In this document: in pieces, positions 40,992 through 53,514 of the stretch | Layout: every line of letters begins with the position of its first letter | Position numbering within the stretch: the stretch's first letter is position 1 | NCBI GenBank assembly: GCA_937923745.1 | Contig: CALDUO010000231.1 | Span: forward strand, 1-53,514 | Length of the DNA stretch: 53,514 bases | Direction: 5' to 3' | Origin: an uncultured Granulosicoccaceae bacterium | GTDB taxonomy: Bacteria > Pseudomonadota > Gammaproteobacteria > Granulosicoccales > Granulosicoccaceae | The notes under the pieces: generated by a model | What the model was told of the DNA's origin: nothing | Databases searched by the model: none | Seen by the model: the letters and a program-made list of their open reading frames with translations, nothing else | Translations under genes and position numbers: made by a program

Positions 40992-41573
40992 ATGGTGTTC
41001 AAGGTTGCACAGGGGTCACTGTTTGCGGTGCTCTCACGAAGTCCCTGGTGGTACAGCGCGTTGATTGGTGCGGCATTCATCGCGATCGCTGTGATTGTTG
41101 CCAGCCCACAGATTTCCGTGTTAATCGGTGCGTGCGGCGTTCCGTTTTTTGGTATCGCGCTCTATGCCGGGTTTAAACAGTCCAAACAGCCCAGTCGCCA
41201 ACGAATTCTGGAGGTCGCCGAACAGGCACGAGGCCTCTCAGCCTCGCAAATTGCTGCCAAAATAGCCGACGGTTATGCCAAAGCGCACTACGATTCAGAA
41301 CCCTTTAAAGGAAATGCGGCAGAGCTGGAGCTGACGCACGGGTATCGAAAGCTTCTGGTAGCGAGCAAACGGTTTAAAGCGGCCAATACCGGGGTTGATC
41401 CACTGAAACAGCTGGTTGCGGCAGGTGAAAAACACGAAGCGACCGGGTATGTCTATGTCACGCTCGGCGAGGTCTCGGACAGCGCCCGACAGTATGCCAA
41501 CGAACACAACATTGAGCTGGTACAAGCTGACCGCCTGGCGGCCTTTTTTGACGGACAGGCCGTGATTGACTGA
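40992..41573 (+). CDS. Membrane-anchored Mrr/restriction-endonuclease-like protein
   Basis: 193 residues. Two hydrophobic segments at about 20-37 and 40-58, then a soluble domain. The segment LLVASKRFKAANTGVDPLKQLVAAGE, followed by YVYVTLGEVSDSARQYA and IELVQADRLAAFF, resembles the Mrr_cat/HJC-type fold: core Lys of Q-x-K, helix, strand, and the 'A..la..n.I.li' tail. The canonical catalytic Asp and Gln/Glu are not clear, so it may be a degenerate nuclease domain with a structural or regulatory role at the membrane. It stands alone. Confidence 0.6.
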   Translation: MVFKVAQGSLFAVLSRSPWWYSALIGAAFIAIAVIVASPQISVLIGACGVPFFGIALYAGFKQSKQPSRQRILEVAEQARGLSASQIAAKIADGYAKAHYDSEPFKGNAAELELTHGYRKLLVASKRFKAANTGVDPLKQLVAAGEKHEATGYVYVTLGEVSDSARQYANEHNIELVQADRLAAFFDGQAVID

Positions 41574-41829: not shown

Positions 41830-42309
41830 TTAAAACGGGGCTGCGGTAACGATAACACCGTCGGTATCGGTATACACATAATCACCCGGATGAAACGTCA
41901 CGCCACCAAAGGTTAGGGGTATGTCGCGCTCACCGGCAGTGACCGGTATAGATTTACGAGAGCAGGTGCCCAGCGCGTATAGCGCGACCGGGATGTCTTT
42001 GATCTGAGCGGTATCCCGAACATACCCGTTCACCACAATGCCCGCATAGTGATTGTTTTGTGCAAACTGCATGAGTTTTTCGCCCACTATGGCGTAATAG
42101 GCTTCCTCTGCATCGACCACCACGACCTTACCGGTGCCGTCTTCATCGCGTAAAAGCGTGAGCAGATCGCTGTTATTGAGGTTGAGGCGAACGGTGACTA
42201 CCGTTCCCTGGCACTTCGCCGCCCCCCCGTAATTGGTAAAGCCCGGGCCCAGTACGGCTGTGCGGTCGGGGTAGGTGTCGCAAAAATCTGCGGTGAAGTC
42301 GTCACTCAT
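41830..42309 (-). CDS. RraA-family protein (possible HMG/CHA-type aldolase)
   Basis: 159 residues, full length for RraA (161 in E. coli). N-terminal DxCDxY segment, NYGGAAKCQG, VVVNGYVRDT and FGGVTFHPGDYVYTDTDG are family signatures. E. coli RraA, an RNase E inhibitor, lacks the Arg-Asp pair; here VRD is present with an upstream VGEKL, as in the 4-hydroxy-4-methyl-2-oxoglutarate/4-carboxy-4-hydroxy-2-oxoadipate aldolase branch. So it may be an aldolase or oxaloacetate decarboxylase. Its gene is divergent from the glutamate mutase operon with a 130-bp gap. Functional choice is uncertain. Confidence 0.82.
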   Translation of the reverse strand: MSDDFTADFCDTYPDRTAVLGPGFTNYGGAAKCQGTVVTVRLNLNNSDLLTLLRDEDGTGKVVVVDAEEAYYAIVGEKLMQFAQNNHYAGIVVNGYVRDTAQIKDIPVALYALGTCSRKSIPVTAGERDIPLTFGGVTFHPGDYVYTDTDGVIVTAAPF

Positions 42310-42439
42310 GATGGCTGCTCCGAAAGGGCTGTCAACAGGCGGCTACAGCCTTGAAAAACCCGGAATTCTACCATCTTCGGGGTCTCGGATCAGTGGCAGA
42401 TTTGATACTATAGAGAGATTCGTCAGGGGCGTGTGTTTA

Positions 42440-42853
42440 ATGAAAGTCGTAACCGGGGTAATTGGCAATGACATCCATGTGGTGGCCAATCGATTAATGG
42501 ATCTGTCACTCAATGCCAGGGGCTATGAAGTCTTTAACCTTGGGGTGAACACCTACCTTGAAGAATTCTTCGACGCTGCCGTCGAAACCGGCGCCGACAT
42601 CCTGCTGATTTCGTCACTCAACGGTGAGGCCGAAGGCTGGAGTCGTGAAGTCAAAATGCTCAAAGCGGGCTATCAGAGCCTCGACAACCTGATCATGATG
42701 ATTGGTGGCAACCTGTCGGTAGGCAGTGGTAACGCCGAAGATATCATCCCGCGTTATAAAAACTACGGCTTTGATCTGGTCTGTCACCAGGTTGATCTCA
42801 ACACCGGGCTAGATATGCTCGACAGTTACCTTCAGGAACACAGACCCTCATGA
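42440..42853 (+). CDS. glmS: Glutamate mutase small (B12-binding) subunit, GlmS/MutS family
   Basis: 137 residues from ATG 42440 (AGGGGC about 9 bp upstream); the frame is open upstream without conservation. It has the B12-binding fold of methylaspartate mutase S: D-x-H-x-x motif as GNDIHVVAN with the axial-ligand His, SSLNGEAEG, and the GGNLSVG loop. The last residue of DxHxxG is Ala, a mild change. With GlmE it forms adenosylcobalamin-dependent glutamate mutase, which rearranges L-glutamate to threo-3-methyl-L-aspartate. Unrelated to the DNA-repair MutS. The stop overlaps glmE (ATGA). The gap before it has a TACTAT-type -10 near 42407. Confidence 0.88.
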   Translation: MKVVTGVIGNDIHVVANRLMDLSLNARGYEVFNLGVNTYLEEFFDAAVETGADILLISSLNGEAEGWSREVKMLKAGYQSLDNLIMMIGGNLSVGSGNAEDIIPRYKNYGFDLVCHQVDLNTGLDMLDSYLQEHRPS

Positions 42854-44214
42854 GTCAGTTGCAGGAAGAGCGCGACATCATTCTCGGCAACGAGAATGTC
42901 GATTCGTTCGATTTTGATGAAGTGCGCGAGTTTGTCAGAGGCGCTGATAAAAACCTGTTTATCTCGCACCACTTTGACAAAGCCGACAAAATGCTGGTGC
43001 AGCCGCGCGGCGGATTCCCCACCTACGAAAAACAGTTTGCGCTGTACGAGTTTTTTGTAGAGGCCAATGTTGACGTGTTGCCACTGACCATCGACTCCAA
43101 CACCCGTCTCAACGACTACGCCACGGCCAAAAAAATGCTGCGCCTCAGTGAGGCCAATGAAGTGGATATGCTCAACGGCTACCCGCTGGTGAATCACGGC
43201 TACCGAAGCACACGTAAGATGATGACGCACTTTAACCATCCGGTGAGTCTGCGTCACGGCACGCCAGATGCGAGGCTACTGATCGAGATAGCCATTGCGT
43301 CCGGCATTTTCGAGATTGAAGGTGGCCCCATCACCTACTTGCTGCCGTATTCAAAAAACTTCCCCCTCGATAAAGCATTTTTGTACTGGAAGTACGTCGA
43401 ACGCGTCTGCGCTGATTACTCCACCCTTAATTTGCCGATCAATCGCGAATCATTCGGGCCACTGACCGCCACGCTGGTGCCACCGTCTATCACCATAGTG
43501 ATTCAGTTGCTGGAAATGCTGTTGTCACTGGAGGAGGGCGTGAAGTCTTTTTCGGTGTCATTTTCACAGCAGGGTTCGATGACACAAGATATCGTCACCG
43601 GCAAAGTCACCCGGGCGCTGGCTGAGCACTACGCCAAACAGATTAACTGCGAAGACGCCAAAATCCATTTGGTGTATCACCAGTGGATGGGCGCATTCCC
43701 GACCAATCGTGATTCGGCCGATCAGCTGATCAACATGTCGACCGTTATTGCCTCGATGGTCGGTGCCGACAAAATTATCACTAAAACCCGCGAAGAGGCG
43801 GTGGGTATTCCGACCAAAGAAGCCAACGCGCAAACTGTGGCCAACACACAATACACATTAAGAATTCTCAGCGGATTACCGGCCATAGTGGACGAGCAGG
43901 AAGAGGCGATATTAACTGCCGAAGTGCATGCCATTATGGAAGCGGTATTTAATGACCCCGCCGATACCCTGTGGCGCAAAGTTTTTAATTCCATCAAAAA
44001 CGGCATAATCGACGTGCCGTTTTCGCCGCATATTATCAATCACAACAAGATGATCACGATTCGTGACAGCCATAAAAATATTCGTATCATTGAGCGCGGT
44101 AATGTGCCGATCCCCGATCACTGTTTTGCCTATGAAAAATCGTGCTGTGATCTGAATAAAGACACCACCAGCATCGTGAATGACATCATCCACGATATAG
44201 GAATCATGCAGTGA
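42850..44214 (+). CDS. glmE: Glutamate mutase catalytic subunit, GlmE family
   Basis: 454 residues, slightly shorter than clostridial GlmE (about 483). All glutamate-binding positions known from Clostridium cochlearium GlmE can be matched: Arg53 in QPRGG, Arg86 in DSNTRLNDY, Arg135 in RHGTPDARLL, Glu157 in EGGPITY, Tyr163 and Tyr167 in TYLLPYSKN. VYHQWMGAFP and VGIPTKEAN are also conserved. This supports true glutamate mutase chemistry over a diverged function. ATGA overlap with glmS before it and GTGA overlap with the reactivase after it mean one translation unit. Confidence 0.9.
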   Translation: MSQLQEERDIILGNENVDSFDFDEVREFVRGADKNLFISHHFDKADKMLVQPRGGFPTYEKQFALYEFFVEANVDVLPLTIDSNTRLNDYATAKKMLRLSEANEVDMLNGYPLVNHGYRSTRKMMTHFNHPVSLRHGTPDARLLIEIAIASGIFEIEGGPITYLLPYSKNFPLDKAFLYWKYVERVCADYSTLNLPINRESFGPLTATLVPPSITIVIQLLEMLLSLEEGVKSFSVSFSQQGSMTQDIVTGKVTRALAEHYAKQINCEDAKIHLVYHQWMGAFPTNRDSADQLINMSTVIASMVGADKIITKTREEAVGIPTKEANAQTVANTQYTLRILSGLPAIVDEQEEAILTAEVHAIMEAVFNDPADTLWRKVFNSIKNGIIDVPFSPHIINHNKMITIRDSHKNIRIIERGNVPIPDHCFAYEKSCCDLNKDTTSIVNDIIHDIGIMQ

Positions 44215-45512
44215 CAGCCAACGACAACAGGCTGCTGATTGATATCGGCAGCACCTACTTCAAGGTCAGCTCCAAAGACCACATCGAGCAGCATTTTCGC
44301 GATTTTAACAAGCGGATACTCGATGACCTGATGCAAAAATGCGGTAAGACCGTGCAGGCTTTTGCACCGGAGAATATCCATATTTGTTCTTCAGCGAATG
44401 GAGGTCTTAGCTCGCTGATCATTGGCCTAACCCATTCATACTCCCTGAAATACGCAACCAATATTGCGTACAACGCCGGTATCAATATCATTGATTCGAT
44501 TATTTTTCAGGATATTGAGGACTATTCAATCCCGAGTGACCTAGTGGATGTTGTCATTGTCGTTGGCGGTATAGACTCCAATGGCAATCTGTTTGACACA
44601 CGCCTCGACACCTATTTGAGTAAGGTTAATTACTCCAATGTCGTGTATGTCGGTAATGCCACTGACGCACAGGCACTGAGTGCCAGAATCGAGCGACTGA
44701 CTGTCCTGCCCAATATTATTGACAACCGGCTGCACATTGTTGAAGAGCATCTCAAAGACTACCTGACCAATCTGTATCAGCAGGATATCGAGGGCAAAGA
44801 AGACATCAAACACCTGTACGACATCACCGGTAATCAAATTTACTCAACACCGTACATTGTCAGCCAGTCATTGCCGTCTATTCACGGAAAATTCTCGGTC
44901 ACCGACCCGTTTATCCTGCTCGATATCGGTGGTGCCACCACTGACGTACATTATTCCAAAGACCTGATCAGCGACAACATTGTCACAGAGCAGGGGCATG
45001 ACCGTATCGTGTTTAAAAAGCTCGGTGTCTATAAGTCGCGCCAGTCGCTGATATTTACTGCCGAAAACAATGAATACGCGTATGAGTTACTGATGCACCT
45101 CAAAGTCACCGAAAACATCTACAACGAGCACAGCGAAAAAGCCACCAAAATTCTGATGCAGCTCGCCATTTTTCTGGTGCTGTGCAAAATGTCTCACTAT
45201 CGACCCATGTACGTAACCCTGCGGTTACTGACCATGAACTCAATTGTTTTTACCGGGGGTATAACCAAGGTACTGACCGAAGACGATATTAAAGACGTGG
45301 TGGCCTTTTTCTATCGCAAAATTCTGAATTCCGATCACAAACCTGCCACTGTGCTCGATACCAACTACGACATCTGGACACTGGGTGCCGCGACACTGGT
45401 CAGCCAAGCAAGTCATGCCGCTGTGGATCACGCCGGGTCCGGTGTTACCACGAACAGTCCGGGTGCCGTGAACAGCCATTCTGGCGCACAGGAGCAATCG
45501 ACATGTCCATAA
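44211..45512 (+). CDS. glmL: MutL/GlmL-type reactivase of the B12 mutase
   Basis: 433 residues, GTG start. Actin-like ATPase signatures: LLIDIGSTYFKVS at 8-20, a second phosphate loop LLDIGGATTDVHY about 240, and a late TGGITKVL motif. GlmL/MutL proteins repair or reload the inactivated adenosylcobalamin mutase. The C-terminal tail of about 30 residues is Ser/Gly/His/Asn low complexity and looks repeat-derived. Its order between the mutase and the ligase, with overlaps on both sides, ties it to this operon. Unrelated to the DNA-repair MutL. Confidence 0.87.
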   Translation: MTANDNRLLIDIGSTYFKVSSKDHIEQHFRDFNKRILDDLMQKCGKTVQAFAPENIHICSSANGGLSSLIIGLTHSYSLKYATNIAYNAGINIIDSIIFQDIEDYSIPSDLVDVVIVVGGIDSNGNLFDTRLDTYLSKVNYSNVVYVGNATDAQALSARIERLTVLPNIIDNRLHIVEEHLKDYLTNLYQQDIEGKEDIKHLYDITGNQIYSTPYIVSQSLPSIHGKFSVTDPFILLDIGGATTDVHYSKDLISDNIVTEQGHDRIVFKKLGVYKSRQSLIFTAENNEYAYELLMHLKVTENIYNEHSEKATKILMQLAIFLVLCKMSHYRPMYVTLRLLTMNSIVFTGGITKVLTEDDIKDVVAFFYRKILNSDHKPATVLDTNYDIWTLGAATLVSQASHAAVDHAGSGVTTNSPGAVNSHSGAQEQSTCP

Positions 45513-47074
45513 ACTGCATTCGAATTTTGCTCGAAAAAGCCGCGCAGTTTCAGCCTGACAAACTTGCCCTTGTTCATAACGAAGAAAAGCTGACCTACGC
45601 CGAGCTGTTGCTGCGGGTGAATCAGGCAGCACTGTATTTGCAGGAGCTTGATTTACCAAAAGGTTCACGCGTCGGTCTGTATGCCAACAAAAGCACGTCG
45701 CAGGTCATTGCCATACTGGCTATTTTATCGACCGATTATATTTTGGTGCCACTGACGCGGCTGTTAAAGCCCGAGCAGGTCGAATACATTATTGAAGACT
45801 GCGATATTCAATGTGTTATTACCGACAAGCTGAAACTTGCGAGCATTGCAGAAATTGATTTTAGCGGTCACATCGTATCGATCGAAAGCACCGACAAAGA
45901 AGTGCCGTCGTTCGAGGATATTTTTAAATACTATAACCGTCCGTTCCGCTGTGACATCAACGGTCACGACAACGCGGTCATCACGTACTCGTTTGGGTTG
46001 ACCGGCACCCCAAAAGGTATTGTCATTTCACACCGAAACCTGATCGACTCGGCACGGGTGGTCTCACAATACCTGAACCTGAACGAAGACGATGTAATCT
46101 CGGGCTTGCTGATTTTTAATCTCGACTATGGACTGAATCAAATCTTTTGTGCACTGTTTAATCGTGCGACACTGGCCTTACACCGGTTTATATTGCCTGA
46201 CGACTTTTTTAATCATCTCATCAACGACAAGGTCACCGTACTGCCACTGATGCCGGTGAATATCTCGCAGATGTTCGACGAAGACCTGTACGCACACCCA
46301 AACGTCGAGTTGTTTGACAGCGTGCGCACCATCACGTCCTCGGGCGGTAACGTCACCGAAAAAATGATCAAAGATTGTGAACGCACATTTCGCCACGCCA
46401 ACTTCTATTCCATGCACGGTCTCACCGAGGCATTTCGCTCGACGTACCTCGATCCGTCACAAATCAAAATACGACCCGACTCTATCGGCAAGGCTATTCC
46501 CGACGTCGAATTGTATGTGATCAATGAGGATGGTGAGGCGTGTGGCCCTCGGGAAGTCGGCGAATTGATTCACCGGGGCGGTTATATCTATCGTGGTTTC
46601 TGGAACGCCCCCAAAGAGACCTCCGAGCGTTTTAAATCGGTCGATATCCTCAGTAAAGTCATTAACCTTGAAGGACAGTTAGCGCCCGAAATCGTGGTAG
46701 CCACCGGCGACTACGTCTATCGCGATGAAGAGGGTTATTTCTATTTCGTTGATCGGCGCGACGACATGATCAAAACCAGCGGATTTCGGGTGTCACCCTT
46801 CGAGATTGAATCTGTTGTAGAGAAAAACCTGCCACACATACAGCAGTGCGCCGTGTTTGGTATGGATAACCCGCAAATCGAAGAAGAAATTGTGATGGTC
46901 TATTCTGCGCCGGGCGAGCTCTCTGAAAAGGAAATAGCGTTTGAACTGAAAAAGCACCTGGCGTCCTACATGGTGCCCAGCCGAATCGTGTACCGAAAAT
47001 CGCTGCCACTGGTGCAAAGCGATGAGAACAAAATCAATAAGGACGAATTAAAAAGAGAATTGGGCGGGCACTAG
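45503..47074 (+). CDS. AMP-forming ligase (ANL superfamily) of the glutamate mutase operon
   Basis: 523 residues, overlapping the reactivase by ten bases. ANL core motifs: A3 phosphate loop TYSFGLTGTPKG (161-172; Phe and Leu replace the usual Ser residues), A5 MHGLTE (304-309), A7 TGD (401-403), A8 DDMIKTSGFRVSP (420-432) and A10 Lys510 in ENKINKDEL. It should activate a carboxylate as acyl-AMP and pass it to CoA or a carrier. No carrier protein gene is visible. The sequence is of the type annotated as acyl-CoA ligase/AMP-ligase. By position the substrate may be 3-methylaspartate or a product of it such as mesaconate; that is inference. Confidence 0.88.
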   Translation: MSINCIRILLEKAAQFQPDKLALVHNEEKLTYAELLLRVNQAALYLQELDLPKGSRVGLYANKSTSQVIAILAILSTDYILVPLTRLLKPEQVEYIIEDCDIQCVITDKLKLASIAEIDFSGHIVSIESTDKEVPSFEDIFKYYNRPFRCDINGHDNAVITYSFGLTGTPKGIVISHRNLIDSARVVSQYLNLNEDDVISGLLIFNLDYGLNQIFCALFNRATLALHRFILPDDFFNHLINDKVTVLPLMPVNISQMFDEDLYAHPNVELFDSVRTITSSGGNVTEKMIKDCERTFRHANFYSMHGLTEAFRSTYLDPSQIKIRPDSIGKAIPDVELYVINEDGEACGPREVGELIHRGGYIYRGFWNAPKETSERFKSVDILSKVINLEGQLAPEIVVATGDYVYRDEEGYFYFVDRRDDMIKTSGFRVSPFEIESVVEKNLPHIQQCAVFGMDNPQIEEEIVMVYSAPGELSEKEIAFELKKHLASYMVPSRIVYRKSLPLVQSDENKINKDELKRELGGH

Positions 47075-47228: not shown

Positions 47229-47699
47229 ATGCATCATAGACCCATGGCAACTTTCGGTAATCACTCAGAACCAACCGTCACCTCAGGCGCGCTCAACATA
47301 GCCGATGCACTGAGGGCTGCCGGTCTTCAGGTTACCGCACAGCGCCTCGCCGTGTATCGTGCCGTGCAAACACATCCTCACGGTCTTGCCGACGAAATTT
47401 GTGCGGCGGTCAGAGCCGACCTTGGTGTCGTGTCGCGGCAAGCGGTCTACGATGCGCTAAACGCCATGGCAGAACACAAGCTACTTCGGCGAATTCAGCC
47501 CGCTGGCTCTGCCACCCGTTACGAGCATCGTGTCGACAACCATCATCATTTGGCGTGCCGCCGTTGCGAAAAGCTCATTGATATTGACTGTGCGGTAGGA
47601 GAGGCGCCCTGTTTGGTTGCCGAGCATGATCACGGATACCAAATTGACGAGGCGGAAGTCATCTACTGGGGCATCTGCCCTGAGTGCCAGCAGCAATAA
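47229..47699 (+). CDS. Fur-family regulator, PerR-like
   Basis: 156 residues from ATG 47229; ATG 47244 (151 residues) fits better if the -10 at 47232 is real. Winged-helix region [15 protein letters not shown]...[12 protein letters not shown], then [14 protein letters not shown] with the conserved His cluster and CxxC, and a C-terminal CPEC: the four-Cys structural zinc site of the Fur family. Being next to katG on the same strand, 203 bp upstream, it is probably a peroxide sensor (PerR/FurA type) that represses katG until metal-catalysed oxidation. An iron-Fur or zinc-Zur role is less likely. Confidence 0.86.
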
Positions 47700-47856
47700 C
47701 CTAATGGGTCTGCAGTGAGACGGCGCAGCAGACAGACAAGACCGGTAGCCAGCAGTAAACCAGGCATCATCTGTAACGTAAAAACGTTTAATGTTCGGGT
47801 AACACACGTAACACCTATGTCGATTGGCTAGCCACCACACCAACGTCCGCCGGCCG

Positions 47857-47868
47857 ACAATAAATTGT
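47857..47868. promoter_or_regulatory. Operator candidate upstream of katG
   Basis: ACAAT-AA-ATTGT: a 5-bp inverted repeat with an AT core, followed by TATAAACC, 34 bp before the katG start. AT-rich symmetry of this kind fits a Fur/PerR-family site. By-eye call; it does not closely resemble the site in front of the regulator gene. Confidence 0.4.
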
Positions 47869-47872
47869 ATAA

Positions 47873-50074
<2,202 letters not shown>

Positions 50075-51475: not shown

Positions 51476-53514
51476 ATGCAAAACCTGACTTACAAAAGCT
51501 TGTCGCAAGGTATAGCTGCAGTACTGGTATTAGTGATAGGCGGTGCGGGCTGTTCTTCCAGCTCGGACAACACTACTACCACCGGCATAGCAGAGACTGA
51601 CACACCCGCTGAGCAGGTCCTGTCTGATGCCGAAACCAGCGATATAGCGCAGGGCATTGAAACACCGGATGACACCGGTACAGACAACACCGGTACAGAC
51701 AACACCGGTACAGACAACACCGGTACAGACGACACCGGTACAGACAACACTGGTACAGATGACACCGGTACAGATGACACCGGTACGGATGACACTGGAC
51801 TACGCATTTCGCCTGACAATGCCAACGCGTTAATTCTGCAGGCTTTCGAAGTCTATTCCGGTCGTGCTTATGACCGTCGTATGACCGACTTCCCGTACAC
51901 CACAACCGAGACGTTTGAGCTTTCTTCCGGAAACGGACAGACCGGAGAGCGACTCACGTTCTCCGCTTGCCAGAATAGTGGACAAATGACCCAAACAAAC
52001 AACAGCGGTAAATTCGACTATTCGGTTGAGGGTGTCTATTCAGATTGCCTGATCAACGGAGATACCCTCAATGGACGTGTTACATTGCAGGATGAAGACG
52101 GTGAGGGCAATGCTTTCTCTCAACGTGTGTACAGTGATAACTTTACCGTGGCGTTTCAGCCGGGTGGCCGCATGACCCTGTCAGGCGTGCAGCAACAGGC
52201 AAACACATTTCGCTCGACCAACGTGTTTAATGTTGAGCGCTTTAACTTTGCATTATCGTATCCTGGTGGATCACTAAGTGTGTCTGATGCAAATACTACC
52301 CGGAGTGTAAAGCTAGCAGGGTTTCCGTCAGGCTCAATGCCAATCGCGCAGATGTCCGGTTCGTTCACCATGCGGCCGCCCGTGTTAAACGGTACCACCA
52401 TCACCGTTGAGACCAACGAGCCGTTCGTCAACAGCCAGACAGCCTCATCGCTGCGTTACGAGACTGGAGTGATGACACTGACTGACGGCGAAGGGCACAT
52501 TGTTGTTAATGCCGATACCGGAAATATCAATACCGTGTCAGTGACGACCACGGTAGATGGACAAACCGCTGTGACACGTGAAGAGCCGTGGTTTGTCTGG
52601 CGTGATGCATTGGCTTATGTGCCACCCAACCCCAATGCCGCACCAGAACCGAATCTGACCACACAACGAAACGATATCATTACGCCTGATAATGCCAACG
52701 CTATAATGCGCGAAGCGTTTGATGTATTGACTGGCGATCTGTTTGGCAGCGAAATGCTTAACTTACCCGAATACACTTTCCCGGATTTCCCGGAGGGGTA
52801 TTTACAAGCGGCAACTCCCGATGGTGCGCAGGAGTGGGGCACACAATCCTGTGCCAATGGAGGGTCGGTTGATCTTGAGAGCTTTAAATTCGGGGCACGG
52901 CAGATCACGAGCGGTTGGAATGCAACCTTTAACGAGTGCGACCAAAATAACAATCGTTATACCGGGCAGTTTTTTACCAGAAACTTCGGTAATTTTAACT
53001 ACAGTGGCAACAACTTTTCGCTGGCATCACCCAATCGTACCGTGTCGTTGGACGGTTCTGTAGACTACAAACGCACGTCCAATCGTGACGGAGGGCCAAG
53101 CAGACACTATGGCCTCAGCGGCGACATCACCCGACTGGTCACCGAGGCCAACTCGCAAGACTTTGGAGAGTACAAAGCCATTCAAGCACAAACGTACTTC
53201 GAGGCCGTGCTCGGATTCCAGCTATTAATGACCGGAGAATTTTATTACTCGTCACCATCCACCAAATCAGAAACCCTACAAATATCAATACCCGATCCAC
53301 TGATACAACGAAACAACATAGGCGGGCTACTGACGCAATACCGCTATGGCACACTGGTCATAAAAGCCGGACAAGGCAATGAACTGATGCTAAACGCCAC
53401 CAACGGTGATGACAACACGTTTGACCTCACAGTAAGGCAAGGTGGCCAAATAACGTATAGCAGCAATGAAGCATGGAGCGACTGGACAGAGGCACTGACG
53501 TTTAATTTTGATTT
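51476..53514 (+). CDS. Large repeat-containing lipoprotein, incomplete at window end
   Basis: Open from ATG 51476 to the last base (679 codons, no stop). GGAAG lies about 8 bp before the ATG. A lipoprotein signal ends GGAGC with Cys26, then Ser-rich. At about 66-105 there is an Asp/Asn-Thr-Gly-Thr array from a 15-bp DNA repeat, a flexible stalk. Two related domains follow, starting near 110 (ISPDNANALILQAFEVYSG) and about 403 (ITPDNANAIMREAFDVLTG), each with a conserved Cys pair. No known family recognised. It is probably anchored to the outer membrane. The duplication suggests a modular surface protein of binding or structural function. Confidence 0.82.
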   Translation, partial: MQNLTYKSLSQGIAAVLVLVIGGAGCSSSSDNTTTTGIAETDTPAEQVLSDAETSDIAQGIETPDDTGTDNTGTDNTGTDNTGTDDTGTDNTGTDDTGTDDTGTDDTGLRISPDNANALILQAFEVYSGRAYDRRMTDFPYTTTETFELSSGNGQTGERLTFSACQNSGQMTQTNNSGKFDYSVEGVYSDCLINGDTLNGRVTLQDEDGEGNAFSQRVYSDNFTVAFQPGGRMTLSGVQQQANTFRSTNVFNVERFNFALSYPGGSLSVSDANTTRSVKLAGFPSGSMPIAQMSGSFTMRPPVLNGTTITVETNEPFVNSQTASSLRYETGVMTLTDGEGHIVVNADTGNINTVSVTTTVDGQTAVTREEPWFVWRDALAYVPPNPNAAPEPNLTTQRNDIITPDNANAIMREAFDVLTGDLFGSEMLNLPEYTFPDFPEGYLQAATPDGAQEWGTQSCANGGSVDLESFKFGARQITSGWNATFNECDQNNNRYTGQFFTRNFGNFNYSGNNFSLASPNRTVSLDGSVDYKRTSNRDGGPSRHYGLSGDITRLVTEANSQDFGEYKAIQAQTYFEAVLGFQLLMTGEFYYSSPSTKSETLQISIPDPLIQRNNIGGLLTQYRYGTLVIKAGQGNELMLNATNGDDNTFDLTVRQGGQITYSSNEAWSDWTEALTFNFD
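51671..51790. repeat. 15-bp tandem array (8 units) in the lipoprotein stalk
   Basis: Eight units of GACACCGGTACAGAC/AACACCGGTACAGAC, with a ninth diverging. Encodes (D/N)TGTD repeats. Changes are mostly between Asn and Asp codons or silent. Confidence 0.96.

What the first reader, a model, noticed from the sequence alone, without database searches (positions are those of the whole stretch)
42440..47074. Glutamate mutase operon with an adenylating ligase in place of methylaspartate ammonia-lyase
Four genes, each overlapping the next by 4-10 bp: GlmS, GlmE, GlmL and an AMP-forming ligase. Seen: GlmE keeps all six glutamate-contacting residues known from the clostridial enzyme (Arg53, Arg86, Arg135, Glu157, Tyr163, Tyr167) and GlmS keeps the B12 His. 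Known: in fermenters the product 3-methylaspartate goes to methylaspartase; in haloarchaea it enters the methylaspartate cycle; in some actinomycete lipopeptide clusters it is a building block. Inference: here 3-methylaspartate, or mesaconate made from it elsewhere, is turned into an acyl-AMP/CoA or loaded on a carrier in an aerobic bacterium. I know of no described pathway with exactly this four-gene unit.
Basis: partly seen in the sequence, partly recalled or inferred. Interest (0 to 1): 0.75.

Follow-up and report, generated by a model that had tools for sequence, protein, structure and literature searches.

The report
Mobile glutamate-mutase module with altered ligase
A vitamin-B12 enzyme that rearranges glutamate into 3-methylaspartate travels between unrelated, mostly marine bacteria together with partner genes that look like candidates for the old, little-explored glutamate route to the isoleucine precursor 2-oxobutyrate, although one always-present partner, a ligase-like protein with damaged catalytic motifs, is still unexplained.

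Summary
The four genes are real: GlmS, GlmE, GlmL and a ligase-like protein, overlapping by 4, 4 and 10 bp. GlmE keeps all six glutamate-binding residues in 81 of 81 proteins, so the product is very probably 3-methylaspartate. The order GlmS-GlmE-GlmL-ligase recurs in 75 of 75 usable loci (Gammaproteobacteria, some Betaproteobacteria, Campylobacterota), GlmE 78-94% identical: a horizontally moved module.

It has more parts than reported. A divergent RraA-family gene (41830-42309, -) accompanies it in 69 of 81 loci. Across 135 Sulfurimonas genomes RraA and GlmE co-occur almost perfectly (21 both; 1 and 2 alone). In many Gammaproteobacteria a dedicated AspC-type aminotransferase travels too. Glutamate mutase, AspC-type transaminase and an oxaloacetate-decarboxylase-like RraA could turn glutamate into 2-oxobutyrate, a route proposed in 1962.

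The 'adenylating ligase' is doubtful. It shares the 3-methylaspartate pocket of VinN (Asp, Tyr, Ser, Arg invariant in 74/74), but its ATP loop reads YSFG instead of YTSG and the A10 catalytic lysine is not conserved. It may bind 3-methylaspartate without adenylating it. Methylaspartase was not found. Threonine dehydratase is retained, so the physiological need is unclear. No activity was tested.

The parts
41830..42309 (-). RraA-family protein, 159 aa, divergent from GlmS; predicted class II aldolase / (methyl)oxaloacetate decarboxylase
   Evidence: RraA family 148.6 bits, cut-off 136; next to the unit in 69 of 81 loci; co-occurs with GlmE in Sulfurimonas
42013..42081 (-). RraA residues Glu77, Arg98, Asp99 (putative metal and catalytic motif E-x20-R-D)
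   Evidence: Invariant apart from gaps in 69 unit RraA; E. coli RraA has Arg-Gln there
42310..42439 (.). Divergent intergenic region between rraA and glmS
   Evidence: Read directly; no Rfam riboswitch found; one promoter-like match on the - strand at 42335-42308, no proof of function
42440..42853 (+). GlmS, B12-binding subunit of glutamate mutase, 137 aa
   Evidence: PRK02261 142.6 bits over cut-off 110; D-x-H, S-x-L and GG motifs invariant in 74
42850..44214 (+). GlmE, catalytic subunit of glutamate mutase, 454 aa
   Evidence: Pfam PF06368 394 bits; aligns with glutamate mutase structures 6h9e and 1cb7; six substrate residues invariant in 81
44211..45512 (+). GlmL-like protein (MutL family), predicted reactivating factor, 433 aa, GTG start
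   Evidence: Pfam MutL 88 bits over cut-off 27; below the NCBIfam GlmL equivalog cut-off
45503..47074 (+). Ligase-like protein of the ANL superfamily, 523 aa
   Evidence: Pfam AMP-binding 213 bits; best NCBIfam TIGR03098 442.8 bits, under its cut-off 592
46124..46438 (+). Ligase pocket residues Asp208, Tyr209, Ser280, Arg312, equivalent to VinN Asp230, Phe231, Ser299, Arg331
   Evidence: VinN is the best solved relative of this stretch; invariant in 74 of 74; VinN roles in PMC11253843
45986..46006 (+). Altered A3 (phosphate-binding) loop YSFGLTG instead of YTSGSTG
   Evidence: Y162 S163 F164 G165 invariant in 74; TIGR03098 proteins keep YTSGSTG
47015..47050 (+). Degenerate A10 region without a conserved catalytic lysine
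   Evidence: Position 510 is K26/Q25/R16 of 74; only Asp507 invariant

Best explanation
The four genes are the core of a horizontally transferred metabolic module, rraA (divergent) - glmS - glmE - glmL - lig, often with a dedicated aspC-type aminotransferase gene. Shown by sequence: a glutamate mutase (GlmS/GlmE) with all known substrate residues and a GlmL-like factor, so glutamate is converted to 3-methylaspartate. Inferred: an AspC-type aminotransferase (module copy in many Gammaproteobacteria, a host enzyme in this genome) turns 3-methylaspartate into 3-methyloxaloacetate, and RraA, a homologue of class II pyruvate aldolases with oxaloacetate decarboxylase activity, decarboxylates it irreversibly to 2-oxobutyrate and CO2, pulling the unfavourable mutase equilibrium. 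Net: 2-oxoglutarate to 2-oxobutyrate plus CO2 with glutamate acting catalytically, that is the glutamate-mutase route to the isoleucine precursor. The ligase-like protein keeps a VinN-type pocket for 3-methylaspartate but is predicted not to adenylate normally; it most likely binds or handles 3-methylaspartate (or an already activated form of it). That role is the least certain step.
For: All six GlmE substrate residues invariant. RraA adjacent in 69/81 loci and co-occurring with GlmE in 21 of 22 GlmE-bearing Sulfurimonas genomes versus 2 of 113 others, also when unlinked. Unit RraA keeps the Arg-Asp pair lost in E. coli RraA, and the family relative HMG/CHA aldolase decarboxylates oxaloacetate (PMC5065237). 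A dedicated AspC-like aminotransferase with Arg292 travels with the unit in 32 loci although most of those hosts already own another copy. Glutamate mutase pathway listed among 2-ketobutyrate routes (PMC7476758). Methylaspartase not found.
Against: Threonine dehydratase C-terminal domain is found in 21/21 module genomes (weak in the six Campylobacterota), so the route is not needed for isoleucine. The ligase-like protein, present in every copy, has no place in this scheme. The aminotransferase is not linked in Granulosicoccus, Sulfurimonas or Arcobacter. RraA activity on 3-methyloxaloacetate has never been shown to my knowledge.
Confidence: 0.38

Rival explanations
1. VinN-like loading. Despite its odd motifs the ligase activates the beta-carboxylate of 3-methylaspartate and loads it on CoA or a carrier protein, as in macrolactam starter-unit biosynthesis; RraA and the aminotransferase serve to drain excess 3-methylaspartate.
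For: VinN is the best solved relative of the pocket, and D230/F231/S299/R331 equivalents are invariant. The ligase is in every copy, translationally coupled to GlmL. Macrolactam clusters pair glutamate mutase with a VinN-type enzyme (PMC10662134).
Against: A3 loop changed and A10 lysine not conserved. No carrier protein or decarboxylase gene recurs next to the unit, and no TIGR03099-type decarboxylase over cut-off in 14 module genomes.
Confidence: 0.22
2. Split half-reaction. The ligase-like protein performs only the second (transfer) half, using aminoacyl-AMP made by another enzyme, like the natural division between PtmA1 and PtmA2.
For: Loss of the adenylation motifs with kept AMP-site residues (Asp403, Arg418) and pocket; precedent PtmA1/PtmA2 (PMC6594144).
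Against: No partner adenylating enzyme is in the unit or recurs beside it.
Confidence: 0.13
3. Reverse use. The mutase runs in its favoured direction and assimilates 3-methylaspartate (made by transamination of 3-methyloxaloacetate) into glutamate.
For: The equilibrium of glutamate mutase favours glutamate (general knowledge); an aminotransferase travels with the unit.
Against: A decarboxylase-type partner (RraA) would destroy the 3-methyloxaloacetate; no uptake or source gene recurs beside the unit.
Confidence: 0.08
4. Methylaspartate-cycle-like scheme: 3-methylaspartate is deaminated to mesaconate elsewhere and the ligase makes mesaconyl-CoA (one option of the first reader).
For: Glutamate mutase is the entry of the haloarchaeal methylaspartate cycle (PMC4682846).
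Against: No methylaspartase beyond weak enolase-superfamily hits in 21 genomes; the ligase pocket has the Asp that holds an amino group, which mesaconate lacks.
Confidence: 0.04

Closest known systems
Clostridial glutamate mutase GlmES with GlmL (methylaspartate fermentation pathway)
   Same: Same three proteins, same substrate residues
   Different: No methylaspartase, mesaconase or citramalate lyase; RraA, an aminotransferase and a ligase-like protein instead; aerobic and microaerobic hosts
Vicenistatin-type macrolactam starter module (VinH/VinI, VinN, VinO, VinL)
   Same: Glutamate mutase plus an ANL enzyme with the same 3-methylaspartate pocket residues
   Different: No carrier protein, decarboxylase, second ligase or polyketide synthase beside the unit; ANL catalytic motifs altered; GlmL, RraA and an aminotransferase added
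TIGR03098 exosortase-associated AMP-forming ligase
   Same: Best family of the ligase (442.8 bits), same D-Y-G, S and GLTEAFRSTYL pocket
   Different: Below its cut-off (592); not in an exosortase cluster; lacks YTSGSTG and NGKIDR; no TIGR03099 decarboxylase partner
Glutamate-mutase route to 2-ketobutyrate/isoleucine (Abramsky 1962, cited in PMC7476758)
   Same: Would use exactly glutamate mutase, a transaminase and a 3-methyloxaloacetate decarboxylase
   Different: Here proposed from gene linkage in other bacteria; hosts keep threonine dehydratase; includes an unexplained ligase-like protein
HMG/CHA aldolase - RraA superfamily
   Same: Unit RraA has the Arg-Asp motif and an acidic residue 21 positions before it; relatives decarboxylate oxaloacetate
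   Different: Closer in sequence to RraA than to HMG/CHA aldolase; tied to glutamate mutase, not to aromatic degradation or RNase E
PtmA1/PtmA2 split acyl-CoA ligase pair
   Same: Precedent for an ANL protein that does not adenylate
   Different: No second ANL in the unit; amino-acid pocket; loss not tested biochemically

Membership tests
Glutamate mutase GlmES | Six substrate-contact residues of GlmE | tested here: met
   81 of 81 invariant; alignment to 6h9e and 1cb7
Glutamate mutase GlmES | B12-binding DxHxxG, SxL, GG motifs in GlmS | tested here: met
   Asp, His, S-x-L and GG invariant in 74; the last motif position is Ala, not Gly
Glutamate mutase GlmES | Activity on L-glutamate | not testable with these tools
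   Needs an enzyme assay
VinN-type 3-methylaspartate adenylating enzyme | Pocket residues D230, F231, S299, R331 and short beta13-beta14 loop | tested here: met
   D208, Y209 (aromatic), S280, R312 invariant; ungapped alignment to VinN in the loop; K330 is Phe
VinN-type 3-methylaspartate adenylating enzyme | Canonical A3 loop and A10 catalytic lysine | tested here: not met
   YSFG in 74/74; A10 lysine not conserved
VinN-type macrolactam starter module | Carrier protein and PLP decarboxylase in the cluster | tested here: not met
   No recurring flanking genes other than RraA and the aminotransferase; no TIGR03099 over cut-off
TIGR03098 ligase_PEP_1 | Score over curated cut-off | tested here: not met
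   442.8 vs 592.35 bits
RraA-family class II aldolase/decarboxylase | Metal-binding and catalytic motif (acidic residue - x20 - Arg-Asp) | tested here: met
   Glu77, Arg98, Asp99 invariant apart from gaps; Glu instead of the Asp of P. aeruginosa RraA 3c8o
RNase E regulator RraA | Tied to RNase E, independent of glutamate mutase | tested here: not met
   In Sulfurimonas it co-occurs with GlmE, 21/22 versus 2/113; RNase E itself was not searched for
Clostridial methylaspartate pathway | Methylaspartate ammonia-lyase | tested here: not met
   Only weak enolase-superfamily matches, best 39.5 bits over part of the profile, in 21 genomes
Glutamate-mutase isoleucine route | Transaminase and decarboxylase for 3-methyloxaloacetate | tested here: inconclusive
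   Candidate genes travel together; activities untested

The most novel reading that the evidence does not exclude
A mobile five- to six-gene module in Gammaproteobacteria and Campylobacterota encodes the glutamate-mutase route from glutamate to 2-oxobutyrate, with RraA as a 3-methyloxaloacetate decarboxylase (a metabolic function for a presumed RNase regulator) and a non-adenylating VinN-like protein as a new kind of accessory that binds 3-methylaspartate.
Probability: 0.22. Interest if true: 0.8.

Novelty: new variant of a known kind. Interest (0 to 1): 0.6.

Why it matters
If right, it gives concrete candidate genes for a 2-oxobutyrate route proposed in 1962, assigns a metabolic role to an RraA-family protein outside RNase E control, and exposes a conserved ANL protein that kept its amino-acid pocket while losing its adenylation motifs. 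All three can be tested in a laboratory E. coli strain.

Tried and rejected
Isoleucine route as a replacement for threonine dehydratase: rejected, the IlvA C-terminal domain was found in 21/21 module genomes (weak and partly below cut-off in the six Campylobacterota). Exosortase context for the ligase: in G061 the exosortase-type ligases are unlinked to its distant GlmE. Dedicated TIGR03099 decarboxylase: none over cut-off, only LysA/SpeA-like scores (the own genome, 85% complete, gave no hit at all). Aminotransferase as a mere insertion hotspot: upstream neighbours differ in nearly every locus and most of those hosts have a second, more distant copy, so it moves with the unit. AlphaFold model of the ligase: pLDDT 58.8, pTM 0.39, unusable, so a compensating lysine could not be checked in space; a deeper alignment would have needed sequences the tool does not take. 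Cobalamin riboswitch near the unit: none. Papers naming glutamate mutase and Sulfurimonas together: none held. The original PtmA2 paper is not held.
Full report
Observation. The window lies in a 4.1 Mb, 265-contig, 85% complete genome whose nearest named relatives are Granulosicoccus and Granulosicoccaceae MAGs. The four frames are as described: GlmS 42440-42853, GlmE 42850-44214, GlmL 44211-45512, ligase 45503-47074, overlapping by 4, 4 and 10 bp. Family searches confirm GlmS, GlmE, a divergent MutL/GlmL and an AMP-binding protein. GlmE aligns with the solved clostridial protein, and all six glutamate contacts are invariant in 81 proteins.

A mobile unit. A pattern scan of about 85,000 species genomes found 218 relatives; the best 80 loci have GlmE 78-94% identical, in Granulosicoccus, Colwellia, Vibrio, Amphritea, Neptuniibacter, HTCC2143, Litorirhabdus, Sulfurimonas, Arcobacter and betaproteobacterial MAGs. 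In every locus where the contig continues (75 of 75) the order GlmS-GlmE-GlmL-ligase is kept; in two of them the ligase frame is short. The unit is rare and patchy: 4 of 369 gammaproteobacterial genomes (the window's own included), 22 of 135 Sulfurimonas genomes by the GlmE Pfam model. GlmE is 86-93% identical between gammaproteobacterial and Sulfurimonas copies, far too similar for vertical descent between phyla. Pairwise identities of the unit's genes correlate with those of GlmE (Mantel r 0.66-0.81), which fits transfer as a block but is not a tree test.

RraA belongs to it. A divergent RraA-family gene lies beside the unit in 69 of 81 loci (window 41830-42309). In 135 Sulfurimonas genomes GlmE and RraA co-occur in 21; one genome has GlmE only, two have RraA only (one of these of another subfamily) and 111 have neither; Fisher p 3e-21, not corrected for phylogeny. 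In several of these genomes the two genes are kilobases apart or on different contigs, so adjacency alone does not explain it. Many gammaproteobacterial carriers have further RraA-like genes that are distant from the unit's (about 30-39% identical or not aligned). Three Arcobacter-type genomes without an adjacent copy have a 50-55% identical one elsewhere. Unit RraA keeps Glu77 and Arg98-Asp99; E. coli RraA has Arg-Gln. The related HMG/CHA aldolase decarboxylates oxaloacetate, and most family members with one of two motifs are thought to be class II pyruvate aldolases (PMC5065237). That Campylobacterota lack RNase E is general knowledge, not tested here.

An aminotransferase travels too. In 32 loci an AspC-type aminotransferase lies upstream on the same strand as GlmS, in most of them facing RraA directly, with a different neighbour on its far side nearly every time. 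It scores 425 bits against E. coli aspartate aminotransferase and 312 against the tyrosine enzyme, and keeps the Arg292 equivalent and PPAHG in 32 of 32. It is 76-84% identical between hosts, while most of these hosts own a further copy at 38-70%. The window's genome has only a 45% copy elsewhere; the five Campylobacterota searched have none of this type.

The ligase-like protein. Its best NCBIfam family is TIGR03098 (442.8 bits, cut-off 592). The best solved relative of its pocket stretch is VinN, which binds 3-methylaspartate as a beta-amino acid with D230, F231, S299, K330 and R331 (PMC11253843). The unit has D208, Y209, S280, F311 and R312, all invariant in 74 proteins; TIGR03098 proteins share the signature. 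But the A3 loop reads YSFG in 74 of 74 where TIGR03098 proteins have YTSGSTG, and no lysine is conserved in the A10 region: position 510 is K in 26, Q in 25, R in 16; position 508 is K in 53; position 513 is K in 69; L091 has none of them; only Asp507 is invariant. Residues of the AMP site (Asp403, Arg418) are kept. The claim of an ordinary adenylating ligase thus fails at two defining motifs by sequence. The structure prediction was too poor to look for compensation. A natural split of the two half-reactions between ANL proteins is reported for PtmA1/PtmA2 (PMC6594144).

What it does. Glutamate to 3-methylaspartate is the best-supported step. AspC-type transamination and RraA decarboxylation would then give 2-oxobutyrate; a glutamate mutase pathway (Abramsky 1962) is listed among at least nine 2-ketobutyrate routes (PMC7476758). 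That no genes have been assigned to that route is my reading of what I found, not a proven fact. Methylaspartase was not found. A BtuR-type adenosyltransferase is in the own genome and in all gammaproteobacterial module genomes searched; it was not found by this family in six Campylobacterota, which may use another type. Against the scheme: a threonine dehydratase C-terminal domain is in 21 of 21 module genomes, so the route would be an extra one, and the always-present ligase-like protein has no place in it. I give the whole scheme 0.38.

Novelty. Every enzyme family is known, and glutamate mutase paired with a VinN-type enzyme is known in actinomycete macrolactam clusters (PMC10662134). New, as far as I could check, are the mobile module, the RraA partnership, and a conserved ligase-like protein with a kept pocket and lost adenylation motifs. 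I class it as a new variant of a known kind.

Noticed in passing
L100-L118 (TIGR03098 exosortase-associated ligases): These proteins share the VinN 3-methylaspartate/aspartate pocket signature (D-Y-G, S, R after GLTEAF in nearly all), which suggests that they activate the beta-carboxylate of an aspartate-like acid; I know of no assigned substrate.
   Followed up: partly
GlmS of the unit, window 42440-42853 and 74 relatives: The B12 motif is D-x-H-x-x-A instead of D-x-H-x-x-G in every copy.
   Followed up: no
L164 7610-10994 (G061): A different, distant GlmE-GlmS-GlmL set (GlmE 26% identical, order E-S-L) sits in a gammaproteobacterium next to acyl-CoA dehydrogenase, CoA ligase and thiolase-like genes, perhaps a catabolic cluster.
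   Followed up: no
window 47229-50074: Fur-family regulator followed by a catalase-peroxidase (KatG-type); the same pair also follows the unit in L023.
   Followed up: no
window 51490-51905 (- strand frames): Short tandem repeat coding for VPVSSVPVLS-like units when read on the - strand; probably not a gene.
   Followed up: no
window 40992-41573: Small protein with an Mrr-type restriction endonuclease domain (Pfam Mrr_cat 44 bits) between a protocatechuate-dioxygenase-like gene and the module.
   Followed up: no
G000:C232:2899-3342 and other contigs of the own genome: Up to five further RraA-like stretches in the window's genome, of other subfamilies or partial.
   Followed up: partly
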